30,875 bases of DNA from a virus: positions 1-30,875 of the IMG/VR virus record IMGVR_UViG_3300010331_000031; one strand, written 5' to 3'. Below, piece by piece: positions 2 to 30,455 of the stretch; the first letter of the stretch is position 1; the number at the start of each line of letters is the position of its first letter. A program made the position numbers and the translations under genes. The notes under the pieces were generated by a model. It was not told where the DNA came from. It saw only the letters and a program-made list of their open reading frames with translations, and did no database searches.

Positions 2-799
2 AATGGCGAAGGCAAGTTCGTTACTGCTTCTAAAGCATTTGTAGAACTAGACCTAGCTATTTGTTACCTAGAAGAACAACACCGAGCTGAGGACGCTGAA
101 TTAACAGACATTCTCAACTCAATGAGGGCTGGCACATTAAAGATGAAGCACCTCAGATGGCTACAGGCTCGTTTAGGGAAGAAACCGAAAGGTCCAATCA
201 CTAAGTTATACACTCTTAACAGGGACGTAGAACAAGAAAATGAAGCACAATTATCAAAGTTAAAGGGAGATACTCACTACTTTCTTAGGACTAGCAAAGC
301 AAGGAACCGAATGGAGCTTAACCGGCTTCAGGAGAACGTCCTTGCCCCTGAAATCCTAAAGTTGAAGGTAGGAGCACTCGTGATGACTGTTAAAAATGAC
401 TCTATGAGACGATGGGTAAATGGAAGCATTGGAACGGTAATACGTTTTGGTGTTGGTGGTTTACCTGTTGTCCAGTTCCAAAGCGGAGGAGTTCATGGTA
501 TCGGTCCAGAAGAATGGGAACATACTAGTGGAGGGGCGAGTCTATCGCAGATTCCTCTCCGTCTAGCATACGCTATCACAGTTCACAAGTCTCAGGGTAT
601 GACCCTTGACAGTGCAGAAATAGATTTAAGTAATGCATTCGTAGGAGGTATGGGTTATGTTGCATTAAGTCGAGTTCGCTCGCTACACACTCTGTATTTG
701 CTTGGCATTAATCGTCGGACGTTCCAAGTAAGTGCAGAGGCACAAAGAATAGACAAAAAGTTCCGAGAAAAGACACAGGAACTATTGACAAAAAGTTAA
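2..799 (+). CDS. Pif1/RecD-like DNA helicase, C-terminal part (5' truncated by window)
   Basis: The reading frame is open from base 2, so the gene starts outside the window and 265 C-terminal residues are visible. The first residues contain an LEEQHR...LTDILNSMRAG stretch typical of Pif1/Dda-type helicases. Further on is the UvrD_C_2-like end of a superfamily 1B helicase: a PLRLAYAITVHKSQGMTLD segment (motif V region) followed by GMGYVALSRVRS (motif VI with the arginine finger). The Walker A and B motifs must lie upstream, out of view. Family knowledge: an ATP-dependent 5'-3' DNA helicase used in phage replication or recombination. Here it precedes a RecB-type exonuclease and an SSB-like gene, which fits a replication/recombination block. 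The last codons overlap the -35 box of the next promoter. Confidence 0.9.
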   Translation, partial: NGEGKFVTASKAFVELDLAICYLEEQHRAEDAELTDILNSMRAGTLKMKHLRWLQARLGKKPKGPITKLYTLNRDVEQENEAQLSKLKGDTHYFLRTSKARNRMELNRLQENVLAPEILKLKVGALVMTVKNDSMRRWVNGSIGTVIRFGVGGLPVVQFQSGGVHGIGPEEWEHTSGGASLSQIPLRLAYAITVHKSQGMTLDSAEIDLSNAFVGGMGYVALSRVRSLHTLYLLGINRRTFQVSAEAQRIDKKFREKTQELLTKS

Positions 800-813
800 T
801 CGTGTGCTACAAT
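785..813 (+). promoter_or_regulatory. Sigma-70 promoter of the exonuclease operon
   Basis: TTGACA (785-790), a 17-base spacer and TACAAT (808-813), with a TGC extended -10 at 805-807. The -35 box lies in the end of the helicase gene. The start site is predicted near 820, leaving a leader of about 60 bases before the ATG at 883. Confidence 0.75.
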
Positions 814-882
814 GGTAACATAGTCAGAGATGACGGTGGTTCATTAACAATTTGGCAATATTATCCTTAAGAAAGGAAAAAT

Positions 883-1818
883 ATGAGTGAATTAATAACA
901 GTAAAACTTACTGGTGTAATTCCAACAGCACAATATGCAAACCTCCAACCAGAGATTGAGGCTCAGGGAAAAAGTTATGAAGAAGCCCAAGAGTTAGCTC
1001 TTTCTCGTATGACGGAGATTTGGAATCGTGTCTGTGAACCAGGAAAAGAACTTAAGGTTGCCCAACCTGTAGGAAACAATGTGCCGACTGAGAAAATTAG
1101 TTATGAAAAGTTGTTCTCTAAGCTAACAGGCGTTGAAGTCCTATTTGATAAGGTAGCCCATAAGTATATTACTCCTGATGGCAAAGACTATCTAAGTGGT
1201 AGTGTATTTGCAGGACGTTACAAGAGTAAGTTCGATAGCGACGCTATCAGTAAATCATTCGCAAAGAAGCATGACGTTCCCCAAAAAGATATCCAAGATA
1301 TGTGGTCTCTTAATGGCGACGTTTCCGCAACCTTGGGGACAGCAGTCCATAATGCTCTAGAGCTTTATGGCAAGTACCTACAGCTGTCCTTGCACACTAA
1401 GGGTACTAATGAGTCCGCTCTCACTAAAAACGGGATTCTCCAACCTATTGTGGAAGCTTTCTACAAGGGACGAGAGGATGAAAAAGCTGGTTACGAGGTG
1501 TTCGTAGCCGATGAGACACACGGTTTGTGTGGCTTCATTGATAGATTACTAATCGTGGACGAGAAGAAGAAAATCTGTCGAGTTCAGGATTATAAAACTA
1601 ACCACACCATTAACAAGCCAGAAACCATCAAAGCTCCGTTTAAGGGACAAGTTCCAAACACTACATTAGGCTCTTATTGGTTGCAGTTAAGCTTTTACGC
1701 TTACATCTTGCAACTTCACGGCTGGACAGTAGAGGGACTAGACATCTTTAACTGGGAAGACAATGAGTGGAAGCTTTACATGAACGATGTCATTGACATT
1801 AGTTCAGAAATAAAATAG
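883..1818 (+). CDS. RecB/Cas4-family PD-(D/E)XK exonuclease
   Basis: A 311-residue protein with the full RecB-type nuclease signature. GTAVHNALE has His156, CGFIDRLL has Asp220, VQDYKT has Asp236 and Lys238, and QLSFY supplies the downstream Gln268-xxx-Tyr272 motif. The family degrades DNA ends with Mg2+ and in phages usually makes 3' single strands for recombination or replication. The N-terminal 130 residues are unassigned and may bind DNA or a partner. It starts at an ATG behind GAAAGGA and has its own promoter at 785. A putative SSB gene follows after 14 bases in the same operon, as expected for a recombination pair. Confidence 0.88.
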   Translation: MSELITVKLTGVIPTAQYANLQPEIEAQGKSYEEAQELALSRMTEIWNRVCEPGKELKVAQPVGNNVPTEKISYEKLFSKLTGVEVLFDKVAHKYITPDGKDYLSGSVFAGRYKSKFDSDAISKSFAKKHDVPQKDIQDMWSLNGDVSATLGTAVHNALELYGKYLQLSLHTKGTNESALTKNGILQPIVEAFYKGREDEKAGYEVFVADETHGLCGFIDRLLIVDEKKKICRVQDYKTNHTINKPETIKAPFKGQVPNTTLGSYWLQLSFYAYILQLHGWTVEGLDIFNWEDNEWKLYMNDVIDISSEIK

Positions 1819-1832
1819 GAAGGAGAACAATA

Positions 1833-2243
1833 GTGCAAGATAAAGACTATAAGATTATCTCTGTAGACCCTCGGGCTGCCTATGATACACAGTACGGTAC
1901 AATGCAACCATATGCCCTCAAGCTTGAAGGTGTAGAAGGCTTTGTACAACTAAGTCAGAAGCCAGAGACAGACGCTCCTTATGTAGGTCAGACCCTACAC
2001 GGTCATACCTTTGAGCAAAATGGTCCACATGGTCCTTTCCTCAAGTTCAAGAAAGTAAACCCCGAATATGCAGGCAATGAAACAGCTTCCAAACCTGAAT
2101 CATCTGCTGACAGTGGGCGTGTCTTAGAACTCTTAGAGGCTATTGCTATTGCAGTCGATGCAGATGTAGCACCTAAGAAAGACACTATACTAGAAGACAT
2201 TGAGGATGGTGCACCAATCGACCTCAGTGAAATACCATTCTAA
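1833..2243 (+). CDS. Putative single-stranded DNA-binding protein
   Basis: A 136-residue protein starting at GTG behind a strong GGAAGGAG. The first 80 or so residues are predicted beta-rich, with glycine and aromatic spacing compatible with an OB fold. The remainder is acidic and low-complexity, and the protein ends in PIDLSEIPF, closely resembling the conserved C-terminal tip of bacterial SSB (acidic residues then I-P-F), which recruits exonucleases, helicases and other partners. Its position between a RecB-type exonuclease and other DNA genes agrees. The OB fold itself is inferred, not seen by motif. An alternative is another small recombination-mediator protein. Confidence 0.6.
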   Translation: MQDKDYKIISVDPRAAYDTQYGTMQPYALKLEGVEGFVQLSQKPETDAPYVGQTLHGHTFEQNGPHGPFLKFKKVNPEYAGNETASKPESSADSGRVLELLEAIAIAVDADVAPKKDTILEDIEDGAPIDLSEIPF

Positions 2244-2257
2244 GAAAGTAGGAGTAG

Positions 2258-2683
2258 ATGAACCAGAACGCAATCATAGAAGCCCTTGAAGCTGAAATTC
2301 AAAAACTAAACGAACACGCTATAGACGAGTTTTCTGGTGATACCCTTACAAGAATTGGTGTACGCCTAGCGGCTTACAAAGCAGGGCTTGGTAATTACGT
2401 TGCCAACGCTAAGACCGAGGCTCTGCGAGCTGAAAAGGCATTCACAGAGGCAAAAGCCAAAGGATACCTCAAACTGAGGGATGACGGTAAAACGCAAGGA
2501 GACGCTGAACAGCTCCGAGTATTAGAAGCGTCGGCTGAGTACGATGTGCTCATTACCGCTAAACAAGCAGAGAATAAGCTCGTAGGGCTTTCGTACAACA
2601 TCTCTGACTTGATTGACGCAGTAAAGAGTCGAGTCATTCATCAACAGATGGAGTTAAAGGAATCAACATCCTTTAATGGGTAA
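2258..2683 (+). CDS. Hypothetical alpha-helical protein in the DNA-processing operon
   Basis: A 141-residue, almost entirely helical protein with heptad-like stretches, rich in Ala, Glu, Lys and Leu. It is preceded by AGTAGGAG and follows the SSB-like gene after 14 bases. No catalytic or metal-binding motif is visible. Its length, charge pattern and operon position suggest a coiled-coil accessory or DNA-binding partner of the recombination genes, but no family is recognised. The stop codon overlaps the start of the next gene. Confidence 0.75.
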   Translation: MNQNAIIEALEAEIQKLNEHAIDEFSGDTLTRIGVRLAAYKAGLGNYVANAKTEALRAEKAFTEAKAKGYLKLRDDGKTQGDAEQLRVLEASAEYDVLITAKQAENKLVGLSYNISDLIDAVKSRVIHQQMELKESTSFNG

Positions 2684-2909
2684 CGCTACCAAAGGCTTTG
2701 CCTCAAACTCAGAAGCACAACAAAAGTATGTATCTGCTAAAGGAGGACGAATTAAAGTCCCCAAAGGTCTGAAAAAGATGACCCAGGAGAAAGCACGAGA
2801 AATACAAAGGTTGGGTGGCTTGAGACGACAACAACAACTAAAGGAGAATAAGAATGTCAAAGATTCTATACCCAGTGGGAACGCAAGTTACCCTACGGAA
2901 GTTTCCTGA
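2676..2909 (+). CDS. KGG-motif (YciG/Con-10-like) small basic protein
   Basis: A 77-residue basic protein. Residues 6-50 contain KGFAS...AQQKYVSAKGGR...TQEKAREIQRLGGLR, which follows the two-block pattern of the stress-induced KGG family (YciG/Con-10), where KGFAS, SKGG, EEAR and GRKGG are conserved. Its biochemical role is poorly known; a DNA-binding or stress-related function is often suggested. The start overlaps the end of the upstream gene by 8 bases. The last 56 bases overlap the next gene in another frame, so the C-terminal tail after about residue 58 is constrained by that overlap. Family placement is by pattern only. Confidence 0.65.
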   Translation: MGNATKGFASNSEAQQKYVSAKGGRIKVPKGLKKMTQEKAREIQRLGGLRRQQQLKENKNVKDSIPSGNASYPTEVS

Positions 2910-3315
2910 AGCTGGTACATTTGAAGTTACAGAATACATTAAGGGTTCAAAGTTCCCTTACCGTGTAGAAAATGACTCAGGTGACGAAGGCTTCAGTGGA
3001 AAGAGCAAGTTCTCAGTGAAAGGTCTGAAACGGTATAACCCGACACAGGCTAAAGTTACACAGGCAGTTTCGACACCTGATGTTCCATCACGAGTAACAG
3101 TTCCAGAAACAAAAAGCTGTAACAATTGTTACACAAGTGAAGAAGTTGATGTCTTAATGGCACAACAGTACGAAGACCTACTTAGCCTTGTCGCAACAGT
3201 CGATAAGGTAGCATACGAGGCTTTCCAAAAGTCTAACCGTATCGCTCAAGTAGTAGACACGAATTTCTGCCGTGTATCAAAGCAGTTCAAAACACTAAAC
3301 CATGATGACGACTAG
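2854..3315 (+). CDS. Hypothetical protein with beta-rich N-terminus
   Basis: A 153-residue protein starting at ATG behind AAAGGAGAATAAGA. Residues 5-60 alternate hydrophobic and charged residues with glycines and look like a small SH3-like or KOW-like barrel. The middle is Pro/Thr-rich and the last 55 residues are helical and acidic, ending in DDD. A CNNC pair near residue 90 could bind metal or form a disulfide, but only two cysteines are clustered. No family is recognised. It belongs to the same tightly packed operon. Confidence 0.7.
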   Translation: MSKILYPVGTQVTLRKFPEAGTFEVTEYIKGSKFPYRVENDSGDEGFSGKSKFSVKGLKRYNPTQAKVTQAVSTPDVPSRVTVPETKSCNNCYTSEEVDVLMAQQYEDLLSLVATVDKVAYEAFQKSNRIAQVVDTNFCRVSKQFKTLNHDDD

Positions 3316-3340
3316 TCAATCAGAAAAGGAATTAAACAAT

Positions 3341-3541
3341 ATGACAACTATCCGAGAAAAAATCCGTTACGCAACACTAGCTAAAGACGAACGAATCCTT
3401 CGTGAATCAGGAGTTCTTAGCGACTCAGGTAACTTGACCGATGTAGGTCGCCGTGTCCTTGCAGACGTACTGTTTGCAGACAAAGCTAACCGTGACGCTA
3501 TCGTCAAGTTAGTTGAAGCAACACTCCCAAAAGAGAAATAG
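3341..3541 (+). CDS. Hypothetical 66-residue protein
   Basis: The start at 3341 is preferred because AAAAGGA lies 8-10 bases upstream. An in-frame ATG at 3302 would add 13 residues and overlap the previous gene by 14 bases. The protein is helical, with SGVLSDSGNLTDVGRRVLADVLF in the centre, reminiscent of small phage helical proteins that begin a helix after a Leu-Thr-x-x-Gly-Arg turn. No function can be assigned. Confidence 0.65.
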   Translation: MTTIREKIRYATLAKDERILRESGVLSDSGNLTDVGRRVLADVLFADKANRDAIVKLVEATLPKEK

Positions 3542-3629: not shown

Positions 3630-3911
3630 ATGGGTAAACGTACTAACGAATGGCTAAAAGTGCGTCGGGAATGGGTTCGAGAGAATCCACCCGACCACCA
3701 AGGTTATTATATCTGTGGAATATGTGCTCTACCAGTTCACTTCTCTGATATGGAAGTTGACCACGTAGTAGGACGGTTGGGGAGGAACCTTGTCGATAAA
3801 GAAAACCTCCAACCGACTCACGTATTATGCAACCGTAAAAAGGGAAGCAAAAAACAAAAGCCAAAAGTGTCGTTAACCGAGTACGCTTTTCGTAGAACGC
3901 TAGACTTGTAG
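3630..3911 (+). CDS. HNH endonuclease
   Basis: A 93-residue protein carrying a compact HNH (beta-beta-alpha metal) nuclease. Visible elements are the first zinc knuckle Cys29-x-x-Cys32, the catalytic pair Asp44-His45, Asn59, His64 and Cys67-Asn68 followed by the typical KKGS. The family cleaves DNA with a divalent metal. Small free-standing HNH proteins in phages act in packaging, as homing nucleases, or in host DNA breakdown. This one lies in the early block far from the terminase, so a packaging role is less certain. No clear ribosome site precedes the ATG. Confidence 0.85.
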   Translation: MGKRTNEWLKVRREWVRENPPDHQGYYICGICALPVHFSDMEVDHVVGRLGRNLVDKENLQPTHVLCNRKKGSKKQKPKVSLTEYAFRRTLDL

Positions 3912-5308: not shown

Positions 5309-5550
5309 CGCATAGGTTGCCTACTCACCTTAAGCAGTAGGGCAAGGTGGCGAGTACCCTAAAGGTATGAGCCATCAACATATGTTCACACTTCGGCTGG
5401 TTGCGACAGCACGTTGCTTACATACCGACTAGTACTTGGAGTTTGTAAGTAGAATCAACGACTCAAGAAGCGAGACTTGAGAGGTGTACACCTAATCATT
5501 CACTTGAGCAGTTTTCGGCTGGTTTCTGTCCAAAAAACCTTCCTTCATGT
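5309..5550 (+). ncRNA. Candidate structured RNA between the lysin and tRNA-Trp
   Basis: This 242-base stretch has no convincing gene but many complementary segments. Hairpin A pairs 5319-5325 with 5336-5343. Its loop (5326-5331) is complementary to 5344-5349, and an alternative hairpin B pairs 5322-5331 with 5344-5348 plus 5352-5356, so A and B exclude each other. Further on, 5412-5422 pairs with 5444-5449 and 5456-5460 (11 pairs with a 6-base bulge), 5462-5467 pairs with 5476-5481, and 5482-5493 is a perfect 12-base palindrome. TTCGGCTGGTT occurs twice (5392-5402 and 5514-5524). No promoter is evident, so it is probably transcribed with the lysin gene. I do not recognise a known RNA family. 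Confidence 0.45.
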
Positions 5551-5624
5551 ACAGAATTGGTCTAATGGTAAGACAAGAGATTCCAAACCTCTTAACAGCA
5601 GTTCGATTCTGTTATTCTGTGCCA
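5551..5624 (+). tRNA. tRNA-Trp (anticodon CCA)
   Basis: A full cloverleaf can be drawn. The acceptor stem 5551-5557 pairs perfectly with 5614-5620, followed by discriminator G5621 and an encoded CCA (5622-5624). The D stem is GTCT 5560-5563 with AGAC 5571-5574 and a GG in the loop. The anticodon stem is 5576-5580 with 5588-5592 (one A-C mismatch at the loop end), with loop TTCCAAA placing anticodon CCA at 5583-5585. The T stem is 5597-5601 with 5609-5613 around TTCGATT. The anticodon reads UGG. It is the only tRNA visible here. Confidence 0.93.
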
Positions 5625-5702
5625 TATTCCTAGTCATAAGCTTTCTTTCATCCTTTCAAAGTTTGTGGCTGGGAATATCATCATAACTTCGGTTGTGGTG
5701 AT
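5625..5702 (+). other. Stem-loops downstream of tRNA-Trp
   Basis: ATATTCC and GGAATAT, about 40 bases apart just after the tRNA, form a 7-pair stem. Immediately after comes an 11-pair hairpin with a UUCG tetraloop: 5677-5687 pairs with 5692-5702, loop 5688-5691, with three G-U pairs. There is no T-tract, so this is not a terminator. It may define the 3' end of the tRNA precursor or belong to the same structured transcript as 5309-5550. Confidence 0.5.
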
Positions 5703-5742
5703 AGTACCTTAAACCCCCTTATACCCCCTATTCTAAATAAAG

Positions 5743-5772
5743 ACCCTCTACTTAATTGTAGGGGGTTCTTTT
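5743..5772 (+). terminator. Intrinsic terminator after the tRNA region
   Basis: A 9-pair stem, ACCCTCTAC (5743-5751) with GTAGGGGGT (5758-5766), loop TTAATT, followed by TCTTTT. It should end the long plus-strand early transcript. Confidence 0.9.
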
Positions 5773-5794
5773 AACTTTGCACGGAAGGAGATTC

Positions 5795-6187
5795 ATGCTA
5801 AAGCTATATCACAGAGAATTAGGTTTTCCAATAACCTTTAAATATCCATCTACAAAAGTAGAACTTAGTTGGAGTAAACATGCCCATCGCCAAGCAGAGG
5901 TAGATAGGTATGGTTATATTTCTAAGATGAAAACACTTCATACAGACGACTATATACCCATTGAGATAGAATATGACTTAGAGAAATCTAAGCCAATCAA
6001 AATGCTACTCAGGAGTAAGTTCGAGGTACACGGTTGTAACATAGTTATAGCTGTTATGCCATCTACTAAAGGTGCTACCAAGGCTTTCATTAAGACAGTC
6101 TGGTATAACCGTGTAAATGATACGCATAAAACACTTGACCCAAGTAAGTACGATGTGCCTGCTTTCAAATTGAAGCTTGACAAATAG
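5795..6187 (+). CDS. Putative RelE-fold/DUF4258-like protein
   Basis: A 130-residue protein starting at ATG 5795, which has GGAAGGAG 5-12 bases upstream; an in-frame TTG at 5777 would include that ribosome site and is unlikely. Visible elements are a SWSKHAHRQAEVDRYG helix and a late FIKTVWYN...DTHKTLDPSKY segment, a pattern shared by small phage proteins related to the DUF4258/RelE-like fold. Members of that fold include mRNA-cutting toxins, but catalytic residues cannot be assigned here and no antitoxin gene is adjacent. It is the last plus-strand gene before the convergent terminator, and its final codons contain the -35 box of the next promoter. Confidence 0.6.
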   Translation: MLKLYHRELGFPITFKYPSTKVELSWSKHAHRQAEVDRYGYISKMKTLHTDDYIPIEIEYDLEKSKPIKMLLRSKFEVHGCNIVIAVMPSTKGATKAFIKTVWYNRVNDTHKTLDPSKYDVPAFKLKLDK

Positions 6188-6205
6188 TATCAAGTGTGCT
6201 ATAAT
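6177..6205 (+). promoter_or_regulatory. Perfect-consensus sigma-70 promoter for a short RNA
   Basis: TTGACA (6177-6182), a 17-base spacer and TATAAT (6200-6205), preceded by TGC (extended -10). Both hexamers match consensus at all six positions. The -35 overlaps the stop region of the upstream gene. No gene lies downstream before the terminator at 6302. Confidence 0.85.
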
Positions 6206-6211
6206 ACCTAA

Positions 6212-6335
6212 TATAGTACGCAAGTACTAAGCACATTGTTCTTACACAACACACCGTTCGTCTTAGGCTAGGATTCTATACCCCTAGCCAAAAACAAGAA
6301 TAGCCCCTAGATTTCTCTAAGGGCTTTTTCTTTTC
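6212..6335 (+). ncRNA. Candidate small RNA of about 120 bases
   Basis: The predicted transcript runs from about 6212 to the T-tract near 6335. It begins with a 6-pair hairpin closed by a GCAA tetraloop (6214-6219 with 6224-6229), continues with a 7-pair hairpin (6266-6272 with 6283-6289) and ends in an intrinsic terminator (6302-6325). The unpaired stretch 6230-6265 could be a seed region for pairing to mRNA. No ORF with a ribosome site is present. Promoter, 5' cap hairpin and terminator together are the typical layout of a bacterial small RNA. Expression is not shown. Confidence 0.65.
6302..6335 (+). terminator. Convergent, probably bidirectional terminator
   Basis: AGCCCCTAGA (6302-6311) pairs with TCTAAGGGCT (6316-6325) with one mismatch, loop TTTC, followed by TTTTCTTTTC. 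Read on the minus strand the same hairpin has a GAAA loop and is followed by ATTCTTGTTTTT, so it can also stop the lysis operon transcribed from the right. Confidence 0.85.
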
Positions 6336-6345
6336 TTGATTTTAT

Positions 6346-6513
6346 CTACAATAGTCCAAGACGGGCTACGAAGACGACTAGTGCTACTAAGCCACCAGCA
6401 ATCCAAGCATATTTGTTGTTAGGTGTCTTGTCGAAAATCATTCCGACTAGAGCCACAACTAAACCTGCTATGAGTGCGATGAGAGCGGCTAAAAGGATTA
6501 CTCCTAGTGTCAT
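6346..6513 (-). CDS. 55-residue two-helix membrane protein of the lysis cassette
   Basis: The minus strand has an ATG at 6513 behind AGGAGG and reads 55 codons to TAG. The product starts MTLGVILLAALIALIAG, has a polar turn FDKTPNNKYAW near residue 30 and a second hydrophobic helix GGLVALVVFVARLGLL. Two hydrophobic helices with a short polar loop fit a holin-like or antiholin-like protein. It is the last gene of the lysis operon, 20 bases after the holin gene, and directly precedes the terminator. Confidence 0.75.
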   Translation of the reverse strand: MTLGVILLAALIALIAGLVVALVGMIFDKTPNNKYAWIAGGLVALVVFVARLGLL

Positions 6514-6750: not shown

Positions 6751-8112
6751 TTATGACTTAAAGTTTTTAAATAGGTTACTTAAGAATTGTATCACATAAG
6801 CAACTAGTTTTTCAAGTACACTTACACGTTGTTCTAGGTCAGTATCAGGGTTCTTTATTTCAGTATCACTTAGGTATACTGTTTCAATAACTTCCTTACT
6901 GCCTTCGAGAACAAGTAGGTCTTTACCGATTATCTGAGTAGCGTGGGTTACACGAACCTTTGTATTGATAGGTAAACGACGGAGAACATTACCATTTACA
7001 ATGTCTAGTACAGGTGTCTCTGAACGTGTCCAGAAGTCCTTGTCTTCAATGTCTTGTAGGTTCTTCAACCATTCTGGCTTTTCCTCTACTGGAACCTCTA
7101 AAGGAGTACCAAGTTCGCTTGCGAGTATACCATTAGCGATATTACCATTAGCTGAGTAACTTGAAATTAGGAACTTAACACCACCTACAATAGTTTCTTT
7201 AGCTATGTCTACTTGTGTACCCTTAGCAATCAGAACGTCTTTGAGTGGCTCTAGTGTTATAAGGTTGATTACCTTAGCACCGCCAGCTGGAAGTACAGAA
7301 AGTTTAACGTCTGTGATGTCTTTAAGGTTACGAATCCACTCTGCAACTGCTGGAACTTCAACAAATGGAGTTGCGTTAGCTGAACGGAAACCTTGTGCTA
7401 GTTCTTTGTCAGAGCTGTATTGAGTGCGATACCATACAGAGCCATCACTCATAGTGAGTTTTTGTTTGATGTCTACTTGTTCATTAGCCTTGAATACTTT
7501 ACCATTACCAGCGTCTCCACCATTAGGAATACCTTCTAGAATACAGTCTTGGGTGAATACAAACTTTTTAACAGGGTTATATACATCACGAGCGACTTCC
7601 TTAATAGCAGGAGGCGTAGGTGTTACTGGTGCTGGGGCATTGATTTGTCGAGCACGAATTGCGATACGATTAAGGTAATAGTTACCAGGACATTGTGTAG
7701 CTTTCCATGAGTTGTGAGGAACAAGGGGAATCTCTCGTCCGTAATAACGCCATGTTTCTGCTACGTCTTGGGCTACTGCTTCATAGTCTTCATCACGACA
7801 ACGAGGGTCACATTCAAACCCTAGAGATGTTGCATTACCCTTGGCGTTACCTGCGTGCCAAGCTGCGTCTAAATAGTCAACAATGACTGCTACACGACTA
7901 CCTGTACCTGTGATGATATCGTGGGCAGAGGCTTGTGAACGGGGATTACAAAGCCATGCAATAACACCCTCATAGCTAGGGTTAGTGTTAGGGTCTCCCC
8001 ACCAGTGAATCGTAATGGTATCAATGGAGCGAGGGTATCCGAAAGCTCCTCGTACAGAAGCGTTTCCAGTATAATTGGGTGAGTTTTTACTATAGTCTAC
8101 GTTATTTGCCAT
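6751..8112 (-). CDS. N-acetylmuramoyl-L-alanine amidase endolysin
   Basis: A 453-residue protein starting at ATG 8112 (AAGGAA upstream; the stop of the previous gene is one base before). Residues 25-155 form an Amidase_2/PGRP domain with zinc ligands His36 (TIHWW), His133 (PHNSW) and Cys141 (QCPG) and a DAAWHAGN substrate loop. A Pro-rich linker follows at about 165-175. The C-terminal region has SH3-like beta segments, two of which begin with a related EW(I/L)(R/K)NL(K/Q)DI motif (about 265 and 340), probably wall-binding repeats, and ends in a short coiled coil and hydrophobic helix. The enzyme cuts the bond between MurNAc and the stem peptide. It sits between membrane proteins and the holin. 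Confidence 0.9.
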   Translation of the reverse strand: MANNVDYSKNSPNYTGNASVRGAFGYPRSIDTITIHWWGDPNTNPSYEGVIAWLCNPRSQASAHDIITGTGSRVAVIVDYLDAAWHAGNAKGNATSLGFECDPRCRDEDYEAVAQDVAETWRYYGREIPLVPHNSWKATQCPGNYYLNRIAIRARQINAPAPVTPTPPAIKEVARDVYNPVKKFVFTQDCILEGIPNGGDAGNGKVFKANEQVDIKQKLTMSDGSVWYRTQYSSDKELAQGFRSANATPFVEVPAVAEWIRNLKDITDVKLSVLPAGGAKVINLITLEPLKDVLIAKGTQVDIAKETIVGGVKFLISSYSANGNIANGILASELGTPLEVPVEEKPEWLKNLQDIEDKDFWTRSETPVLDIVNGNVLRRLPINTKVRVTHATQIIGKDLLVLEGSKEVIETVYLSDTEIKNPDTDLEQRVSVLEKLVAYVIQFLSNLFKNFKS

Positions 8113-8113
8113 A

Positions 8114-8530
8114 TTATTCCTTATTAGTTTTATTATAACCATTTCCTATTATTCCGTCAATAGCTTGGTCTTTAAATAGTTCATATTCTTTACGCATAGT
8201 AACTAACATATCTCTCAACTCTTTATTTTCCTTGCGAGAAAGTCCAAGTTCTTGATGTGTAATAGCTAAAGAGTTTTCTAGTTTACGTACCATAGCACGA
8301 GTATCAGATAGTTCATCTTCTAATTCTAACATCAGTTTCGCCTTCCTTCCATCTTCTATATCTTTCTGTTTAATAAGTCTTTCATACCCATCAAACATTT
8401 GTTCCATTCTATCTTTTGGTTCTTTTTCTGCTCTAATCTTTTGTACCTTTTTAGAGGCAACATTAACAATGTAAGCAATAGCTATGCCACTAATAGCAGA
8501 AATTAACGGTACATATAGTGATTCGTTCAT
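8114..8530 (-). CDS. Membrane-anchored coiled-coil protein of the lysis cassette
   Basis: A 138-residue protein with one N-terminal hydrophobic helix (about residues 5-26), a basic stretch KKVQKIRAEK and a long coiled coil (about 40-125). Its ATG overlaps the stop of the upstream gene (TAATG). Similar short proteins, one helix plus coiled coil, accompany lysA and holin in many actinobacteriophages. The role there is unclear; control of lysis or a second holin is possible. A spanin function is unlikely if the host has no outer membrane. Confidence 0.7.
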   Translation of the reverse strand: MNESLYVPLISAISGIAIAYIVNVASKKVQKIRAEKEPKDRMEQMFDGYERLIKQKDIEDGRKAKLMLELEDELSDTRAMVRKLENSLAITHQELGLSRKENKELRDMLVTMRKEYELFKDQAIDGIIGNGYNKTNKE

Positions 8531-28521: not shown

Positions 28522-30222
28522 TTATCTTATCACCTTATGCTTCTTAACGCCAGTAGGCTTTATAACTTTTAATTCTTTCTTATTATTAGCAGACCAGTCC
28601 CATAATTGCAAGGCTATAGCTTTTGCCATAACCGTATCATCATGTGTACCAGATTCCGCATTCGTTCTGCCCTTCTCATCTCTAACATACGAGAACGCTT
28701 CTTCGATAAATACAATGTCCTCATCTTTGACAAGTCCCTCTCTGATTGCTTCAGCGAGATAGTCAATCGCAAGCGGCTTTGTAATAGTCGTAGTTTTCCA
28801 ACCAAATTTTGTAGTCGATGTTTCAAATACTTCATCTAAACCTGTCTCCCTTTTGTAAAGGTTACTATAAAACAAATCACGCAATCTTTGAACAACTGCT
28901 AAACCGTGGTTATTAATCTCTGGTCCGATTAGTGCGTAATTGTAAAGGCGTCCAAGTTTATCCAATACATGGGCAAACTCATCAGGGTCTAGTCGGTCTG
29001 TTCGCAAACGAGCTACGGTCTTCATGTCTCGTACACGTATGACATCTGCTACTGAGAAGTCTCCACCTTCGATACCTTCTGCCACATCGGCTCCGATAAC
29101 GTATTCTTCCCCTTGCTCAGGCATATACCATATCTTTAGTTTAGCATGTCTGTCTTCTGTAACATAGGGTTCACGAGAATCATTATCGTGGATTGAATAT
29201 GTAGGTGCGTCATTTACAAGTTTTTCCATGTGAGCAAGTGCTTTCACGTTGAATACTGTAGAACCACTAGCAATAAATGCTTCGTGTGGTGTAGATGGAT
29301 ATTCCTGGTATAGAAGCTCTGGGCTTGCAACGAACTCTCGTTCTTTGTGTCGGCGGAATCGAATCTTATCATCAATCATATTCTCTGGTACAATGTATGT
29401 TTCATTACCAATCGTAATACCTTCACGCATTAGGTCTACTACATCTTGTTCATCAATAGTGTATTCTTCTATCTTTTCACCAGGAAATGCATATTCTTCT
29501 TGAATCCACCAAGGAAAAAAGAAAGTCTCAAATACTGAGTCGCCCTTAACAGACTTATCCCACATCTTTGCAAAGAAGTTACCTCGTCCGTTAGCTGTAC
29601 TCTCAAGGAAAATCATAGTGTTCTTCCTGTAAGGAACAGTCTGCATTAACGAACCGACCAAATCTTCACCGTTGTCCCAGAACGCAACCTCCGAGCCATG
29701 GACAAGTTGAATCGTGTCCGAGCGTCCAGCACCTGTATTCTTAGCTGTAGCAGTCTTGATAACAGAGTTAAGACCGATTTCGTTACCATCTTTGTCTTGA
29801 AGTCCAAAAGTAAGGTCAGACCGAGTGTCATACTTACGATTAGGCTTAAATAGTGGATTGCTGTTATCATAATACCTCTTAAACATATTATACAAGTTAC
29901 GTGAAGCTGGGTCTTCGTGTGCGATAATAGCCGCTGTAACATTCTTGTGTGTTGTTGTGTACCAGTAAATGAGAGCCTCAATAGCTGTAGACAATCCCAT
30001 TTGTCGTGCTTTCAATACGATAATACGTATAGGTAGGTTGTTTTCAAGTAAATAGACTACTCGTTCAATCAAAGCTCTTTGTGCAATGTTGGGTTCAAAC
30101 TTTACAATCTCAGCGTCTTTGCTTTTTATATAAAGATTACCTTTAGCATAACGATAGAAGCTCTTGCTGATTTCAAGAATCTTCTGGTTTTGTGCGTCAG
30201 TTAAGCCTACTTCGTTATCCAT
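28522..30222 (-). CDS. Terminase large subunit
   Basis: A 566-residue protein with a complete ATPase and nuclease pair. Walker A-like KARQMGLST is at residues 71-79; a Walker B region lies near IQLVHGSEVAFW, followed by the coupling motif IFLESTANG. The nuclease domain carries IGADVAEGIEGGDFSVADVI, a later IGPEINNHG and HDDTVMAKAIAL, giving the acidic metal-binding set of RNase H-like terminase nucleases. It packages the genome using ATP through the portal. ATG 30222 overlaps the RHH gene by 8 bases, with AGAGGA upstream. Confidence 0.95.
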   Translation of the reverse strand: MDNEVGLTDAQNQKILEISKSFYRYAKGNLYIKSKDAEIVKFEPNIAQRALIERVVYLLENNLPIRIIVLKARQMGLSTAIEALIYWYTTTHKNVTAAIIAHEDPASRNLYNMFKRYYDNSNPLFKPNRKYDTRSDLTFGLQDKDGNEIGLNSVIKTATAKNTGAGRSDTIQLVHGSEVAFWDNGEDLVGSLMQTVPYRKNTMIFLESTANGRGNFFAKMWDKSVKGDSVFETFFFPWWIQEEYAFPGEKIEEYTIDEQDVVDLMREGITIGNETYIVPENMIDDKIRFRRHKEREFVASPELLYQEYPSTPHEAFIASGSTVFNVKALAHMEKLVNDAPTYSIHDNDSREPYVTEDRHAKLKIWYMPEQGEEYVIGADVAEGIEGGDFSVADVIRVRDMKTVARLRTDRLDPDEFAHVLDKLGRLYNYALIGPEINNHGLAVVQRLRDLFYSNLYKRETGLDEVFETSTTKFGWKTTTITKPLAIDYLAEAIREGLVKDEDIVFIEEAFSYVRDEKGRTNAESGTHDDTVMAKAIALQLWDWSANNKKELKVIKPTGVKKHKVIR

Positions 30223-30421
30223 TAAGTTCCTCTACAATATCCATTTGGTGTAATCGTTTAATCTTATTCTCGAACTCAGTAGACTTATCTTCTACATAGC
30301 CCTCTAGGCGTTTTTCTTTTAGTTTCTTATTAATCCATTCAGATTTGTCCTTCATGTTCTCATAAAACTCTAGGTTATCATCTGAGACATAAATCATTTT
30401 CTGGTTTTTGCGTGTGCTCAT
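30215..30421 (-). CDS. Ribbon-helix-helix-like protein upstream of the large terminase
   Basis: A 68-residue protein. Residues 8-37 (KMIYVSDDNLEFYENMKDKSEWINKKLKE) have the beta strand, helix, S-E-W-I-N turn and helix of a ribbon-helix-helix DNA-binding domain; the tail is a short charged helix. RHH proteins bind DNA as dimers and often repress their own promoter. The position just before the large terminase would also fit a small terminase-like recognition protein, although it is shorter than usual ones. No ribosome site precedes the ATG, and the promoter -10 ends only 7 bases upstream, so the mRNA is probably leaderless. Confidence 0.65.
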   Translation of the reverse strand: MSTRKNQKMIYVSDDNLEFYENMKDKSEWINKKLKEKRLEGYVEDKSTEFENKIKRLHQMDIVEELNG

Positions 30422-30427
30422 ACAAAT

Positions 30428-30455
30428 ATTATAACAGGTATATATATAATGTCAA
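30428..30455 (-). promoter_or_regulatory. Promoter of the terminase operon, likely leaderless mRNA
   Basis: On the minus strand: TTGACA (30450-30455), a 16-base spacer and TATAAT (30428-30433), preceded by TGT. The ATG of the RHH gene begins 7 bases after the -10 box, so the predicted start site coincides with the A of ATG. Confidence 0.75.

What the first reader, a model, noticed from the sequence alone, without database searches (positions are those of the whole stretch)
6177..6335. Autonomous small RNA gene at the convergent junction
A promoter matching the sigma-70 consensus at all twelve hexamer positions with a 17-base spacer and a TGC extended -10 leads to no gene. About 10 bases into the expected RNA a GCAA-capped hairpin starts, then a 7-pair hairpin, then an intrinsic terminator about 120 bases from the start. 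The open stretch 6230-6265 is available for base pairing. It is the strongest promoter match in the window and apparently serves only this RNA.
Basis: partly seen in the sequence, partly recalled or inferred. Interest (0 to 1): 0.65.

Follow-up and report, generated by a model that had tools for sequence, protein, structure and literature searches.

The report
Conserved small-RNA gene in a podovirus
Between the two halves of an uncultivated podovirus genome, where the genes run head-on into each other, a very strong promoter makes only a roughly 120-base untranslated RNA that related phages keep, so it is very probably a real phage small RNA, although its target is unknown.

Summary
A 12/12 sigma-70 promoter with a 17-base spacer and extended -10 (6177-6205) is followed, with no gene between, by a GCAA-capped hairpin, a 36-base open linker, a 7-pair hairpin and an intrinsic terminator (about 6212-6331; folding z = -4.95). 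A 12/12 match is rare (0.03 expected per window), but a second one exists at 30455(-), so 'the strongest promoter' is only shared.

Relatives support a genuine RNA gene. A phage about 84% identical keeps the promoter, has a compensatory C-G to U-A change in hairpin 1, a one-base deletion in the linker, and then 158 identical bases. A phage with 72% identical terminase has its only 12/12 promoter at the same junction, driving hairpin - linker - hairpin - terminator with rewritten but paired stems and the shared linker motif ACACCGTTC. Several more distant podoviruses have an extended -10 just before the junction terminator, but not this RNA sequence. There is no Rfam match.

The proposed base-pairing role has no support: no phage target beats shuffled linkers. 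Best reading: an autonomous phage small RNA, a new member of a known kind. Right beside it, distant relatives carry a clearly covarying, undescribed structured RNA, which may deserve its own study.

The parts
6177..6205 (+). sigma-70-type promoter, TTGACA-17-TATAAT with TGC extended -10
   Evidence: 12/12; kept 12/12 in G002 and, at the same junction, in G007
6212..6331 (+). predicted noncoding RNA, about 120 bases
   Evidence: start inferred from the -10, end from the terminator; z = -4.95
6214..6229 (+). hairpin 1, 6 pairs, GCAA loop
   Evidence: fold; pair 6219-6224 is C-G here and U-A in G002
6230..6265 (+). open linker
   Evidence: unpaired in the MFE fold; one-base deletion in G002 excludes a conserved reading frame
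6251..6259 (+). linker motif ACACCGTTC shared with G007
6266..6289 (+). hairpin 2, 7 pairs (GGCTAGG/CCTAGCC)
   Evidence: fold; identical in G002; a different but paired 5-pair stem in G007
6296..6331 (.). intrinsic terminator, probably bidirectional: ends this RNA and the convergent late operon
   Evidence: hairpin 6302-6325, T-run 6325-6329 on the plus strand; the convergent ORF's stop end lies just beyond, at about 6345

Best explanation
It is a stand-alone phage small-RNA gene, read by host RNA polymerase with its main sigma factor from a near-ideal promoter and stopped about 120 bases later by the terminator that probably also ends the opposing late operon. The 5' hairpin and the terminator hairpin probably protect a stable RNA whose working part is the linker, above all ACACCGUUC, presumably acting in trans on a host RNA or protein. 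Shown by comparison: promoter, element order, paired stems, conserved linker motif, absence of coding. Inferred: that it is transcribed, its timing, stability, trans action and partner.
For: 12/12 promoter, rare by chance; z = -4.95; compensatory C-G to U-A in hairpin 1 of G002 and 158 identical bases from 6248; in G007 the only 12/12 promoter of the genome sits at the same junction and drives hairpin 1 - linker with ACACCGTTC - hairpin 2 - terminator, z = -7.52; the full arrangement recurs in IMG/VR only in this clade, and other readable hits of the pattern mostly lead into start codons.
Against: No expression data. Only three distinct homologues with the motif, two of them close. No target found. 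The relative at 59% (G009) has no such promoter at its junction. The 158-base identity runs into the neighbouring gene, so recombination may explain part of it.
Confidence: 0.66

Rival explanations
1. Antisense control of the late operon: the 3' end of this RNA overlaps the 3' end of the convergent late (lysis) mRNA, and rare read-through would make an antisense RNA to the lysis genes.
For: Tail-to-tail geometry with a shared terminator.
Against: The terminator is well formed in all close relatives, so read-through should be low; the most conserved unpaired motif (6251-6259) lies upstream of the expected overlap; the RNA stops before the convergent ORF.
Confidence: 0.14
2. Collision insulator: constant firing of the promoter blocks late polymerases that pass the terminator, and the RNA itself is a by-product.
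For: Extended -10 elements recur just before the junction terminator in MW202692, G011 and G013 and weakly in G012 and G014, although the RNA sequences differ.
Against: Does not explain the compensatory change, hairpin 2 or the linker motif; G009 and G015 lack the promoter.
Confidence: 0.12
3. A chance or vestigial promoter with an ordinary terminator; the RNA has no function.
For: No transcript data and no identified target.
Against: In G002 and G007 the single 12/12 promoter of the whole genome is this one; structure and linker motif are conserved.
Confidence: 0.08

Closest known systems
Lambda OOP RNA (PMC12197685)
   Same: Short phage RNA with its own promoter (pO)
   Different: OOP is antisense to the cII coding region; this RNA ends before the opposing gene and overlaps at most its mRNA 3' end
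Phage T4 stable RNAs C and D (from own knowledge, no paper found in the library)
   Same: Small stable noncoding RNAs of a virulent phage near tRNA genes, function unknown
   Different: No sequence comparison was made; here the RNA has its own strong promoter and lies at a convergent junction
phi29 pRNA (packaging RNA; from own knowledge)
   Same: About 120-base phage RNA from a dedicated host-type promoter
   Different: No Rfam match; this phage has an ordinary TerL and the RNA has a simple three-hairpin architecture

Membership tests
Autonomous bacterial/phage small RNA gene | Own promoter | tested here: met
   12/12 sigma-70 consensus, conserved in relatives; sequence evidence only
Autonomous bacterial/phage small RNA gene | Own intrinsic terminator and no open reading frame | tested here: met
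   Terminator 6302-6331; no ATG, linker indel in G002
Autonomous bacterial/phage small RNA gene | Conserved secondary structure | tested here: met
   One compensatory pair G002; rewritten paired stems in G007; few sequences
Autonomous bacterial/phage small RNA gene | Discrete transcript of 50-300 bases | not testable with these tools
   Needs RNA sequencing or Northern blot
Trans-acting base-pairing small RNA | Complementary targets near ribosome-binding sites | tested here: not met
   Phage targets only: no better than shuffled linkers, not shared; host targets not testable, host unknown
OOP-type cis antisense RNA | Overlaps a coding region on the other strand | tested here: not met
   RNA ends about 6331; the convergent ORF ends beyond it, at about 6345
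phi29 pRNA or any of 4227 Rfam 15 families | Match to the covariance model | tested here: not met
   Only the tRNA at gathering threshold; nothing credible at E up to 10

The most novel reading that the evidence does not exclude
The junction is a dedicated RNA module of a whole podovirus group: a strong promoter with a small RNA whose C-rich unpaired linker (ACACCGUUC here, ACCUCCCCCAACACCGUUC in G007, CACCUUCC in G008, tandem CACCUUCC/ACACCUCCC/CUCCACCUCAC beside the junction in distant kin) mimics the 16S anti-Shine-Dalgarno tail and competes for mRNA start sites, next to a second, undescribed structured RNA.
Probability: 0.1. Interest if true: 0.72.

Novelty: new member of a known kind. Interest (0 to 1): 0.43.

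Why it matters
Few small RNAs of virulent phages have a comparative record; this one gives a specific, testable transcript with a conserved 9-base motif. The same intergenic region in relatives holds covarying structured RNAs absent from Rfam, suggesting that these podoviruses rely on RNA elements that annotation has missed.

Tried and rejected
Coding: no ATG in the RNA, and the linker indel in G002 breaks any TTG frame. Rfam: none. Near-identical annotated phages: none. Phage mRNA targets of the linker: not above shuffles; exact GAACGGTG in the window lies only antisense to genes or in the RNA's own complement. Other readable hits of the promoter-plus-motif scan mostly lead into start codons and are not relatives. 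A pattern scan for more close kin through the neighbouring two-hairpin RNA found only the same three phages. MAFFT on the three RNAs misaligned G007, so that comparison was made by structure and motif instead. Plus-strand ORFs downstream of the terminator look like shadows of minus-strand genes (stops in G002 or poor match). Pairing of the linker with the structured RNA at 5309-5550 was looked at by eye: only 5 bases, not pursued.

Full report
What the window is. It is a 30.9-kb fragment of an uncultivated podovirus (IMG/VR). Early/replication genes run rightward (helicase, exonuclease, endonuclease, LysM-containing lysin, tRNA-Trp, ORF 5777-6187) and the late operon runs leftward from the terminase (30222) through portal, capsid and tail to an amidase (6751-8142) and two short ORFs. 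The two blocks meet at about 6300. No near-identical annotated phage was found, but IMG/VR holds an almost identical 45.2-kb contig (G001) and a 45.6-kb relative (G002) at 84% over aligned DNA. Through terminase and portal profiles I reached relatives with the same architecture: G007 (72% terminase identity), G008 (69%), G009 (59%), and more distant ones at 41-47%, namely G010-G015, MW202692 and a contig from a Dependentiae bin (G021). A further relative lies in a Saccharibacteria bin. The host of the window phage is unknown.

The observation. All the stated elements are present. The promoter is 12/12 with a 17-base spacer and TGC before the -10. Generic promoter-like sites occur at chance frequency here, but 12/12 is expected 0.027 times per window, and 12/12 with TG never occurred in 150 simulations. 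A second 12/12 promoter at 30455(-), spacer 16, precedes the late operon, so this one is not uniquely strong. Hairpin 1 starts 2-3 bases after the expected start, not about 10. The 120-base RNA folds at z = -4.95.

Test by close relative. In G002 the promoter is 12/12. Within the RNA region the only changes are one base before hairpin 1, the two partners of one base pair in hairpin 1 (C-G to U-A, GCAA loop kept), one base in the linker, and a one-base deletion in the linker. That two of four substitutions fall on partners of one pair and compensate is unlikely by chance (my own rough estimate, about 0.005). The stretch 6248-6405 is identical, the second-longest such run in the window after one in the capsid gene. 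As this run includes the 3' end of the next gene, recombination may contribute.

Test by a more distant relative. In G007 the noncoding sequence has otherwise diverged, yet at the same junction lies that genome's only 12/12 promoter, followed by a 10-pair hairpin at the 5' end, a 19-base linker, a 5-pair hairpin and a strong terminator (z = -7.52). The stems are different sequences but paired; the linker shares ACACCGTTC with the window at the same place, between hairpins 1 and 2 (chance about 0.001 for these linker lengths, my estimate). G008 has an extended -10 TGCTATAAT, a 5' hairpin followed by CACCTTCC, and further hairpins before the terminator: a plausible but unproven counterpart.

Family level. 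Upstream of the junction terminator, MW202692, G011 and G013 also have extended -10 elements that score high for their genomes; G012 and G014 have weaker ones; G009 and G015 have none. The combined p-value excluding the window clade (but including G007) is 1e-5; the null includes coding DNA and the terminator positions were chosen by eye, so I treat it as suggestive. The short RNAs there do not share the window's sequence.

Function. Linker pairing with translation-start regions of G001, G002 and G007 gives energies within the range of shuffled linkers, and the best hits differ between relatives. So antisense action on phage genes has no support; a host RNA or a protein partner remains open. 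I commit to a stand-alone small RNA acting through its linker (0.66), with 3'-overlap antisense control of the late operon, a collision insulator, and no function as rivals.

Novelty. Small RNAs with their own promoter are a known kind of phage element (OOP and others, PMC12197685); this is a new, uncatalogued member. The surrounding region is possibly richer than the finding: see the passing notes on the covarying RNA in distant relatives and on the two-hairpin RNA at 5625-5737.

Noticed in passing
L011 (MW202692) 3183-3357; also G011, G012, G013, G015, G021 at the same place: Undescribed structured RNA of roughly 180 bases between the lysozyme gene and the junction promoter: 15 of 25 predicted pairs in its 5' part show compensatory changes on both sides; conserved CTTGCCGTGG, GTGCACAC and GCCGTCCCTCCCA; no Rfam match for MW202692. 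Possibly more interesting than the finding itself.
   Followed up: partly
window 5625-5737: Two-hairpin noncoding RNA directly after tRNA-Trp; 121 identical bases in G002; in G007 both stems are rewritten but still pair, with the tail AGTACCTTAWACCCCC kept.
   Followed up: partly
window 5309-5550: Structured region between the lysin gene and tRNA-Trp, part of 5309-5776 that folds at z = -4.15; no Rfam match. Possibly the counterpart of the distant-clade RNA.
   Followed up: no
L011 (MW202692) about 3640-3710 minus strand; also G021, G015; plus strand in G012: Tandem anti-Shine-Dalgarno-like motifs (CACCTTCC, ACACCTCCC, CTCCACCTCAC) beside the junction, conserved across distant relatives and on the opposite strand in one: candidate second small RNA.
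   Followed up: partly
window 30415-30455 minus strand: A second 12/12 promoter places the expected start on the ATG of ORF 30215-30421, suggesting a leaderless mRNA at the head of the late operon.
   Followed up: no
window 785-845 and G007 about 44931-44990: Transcripts from two strong promoters begin with ATTAACAATTT, which resembles the rRNA boxA antitermination region.
   Followed up: no
L057 (G007) 544-3272: G007 carries at least 22 tRNA genes between lysin and junction where the window has a single tRNA-Trp.
   Followed up: no
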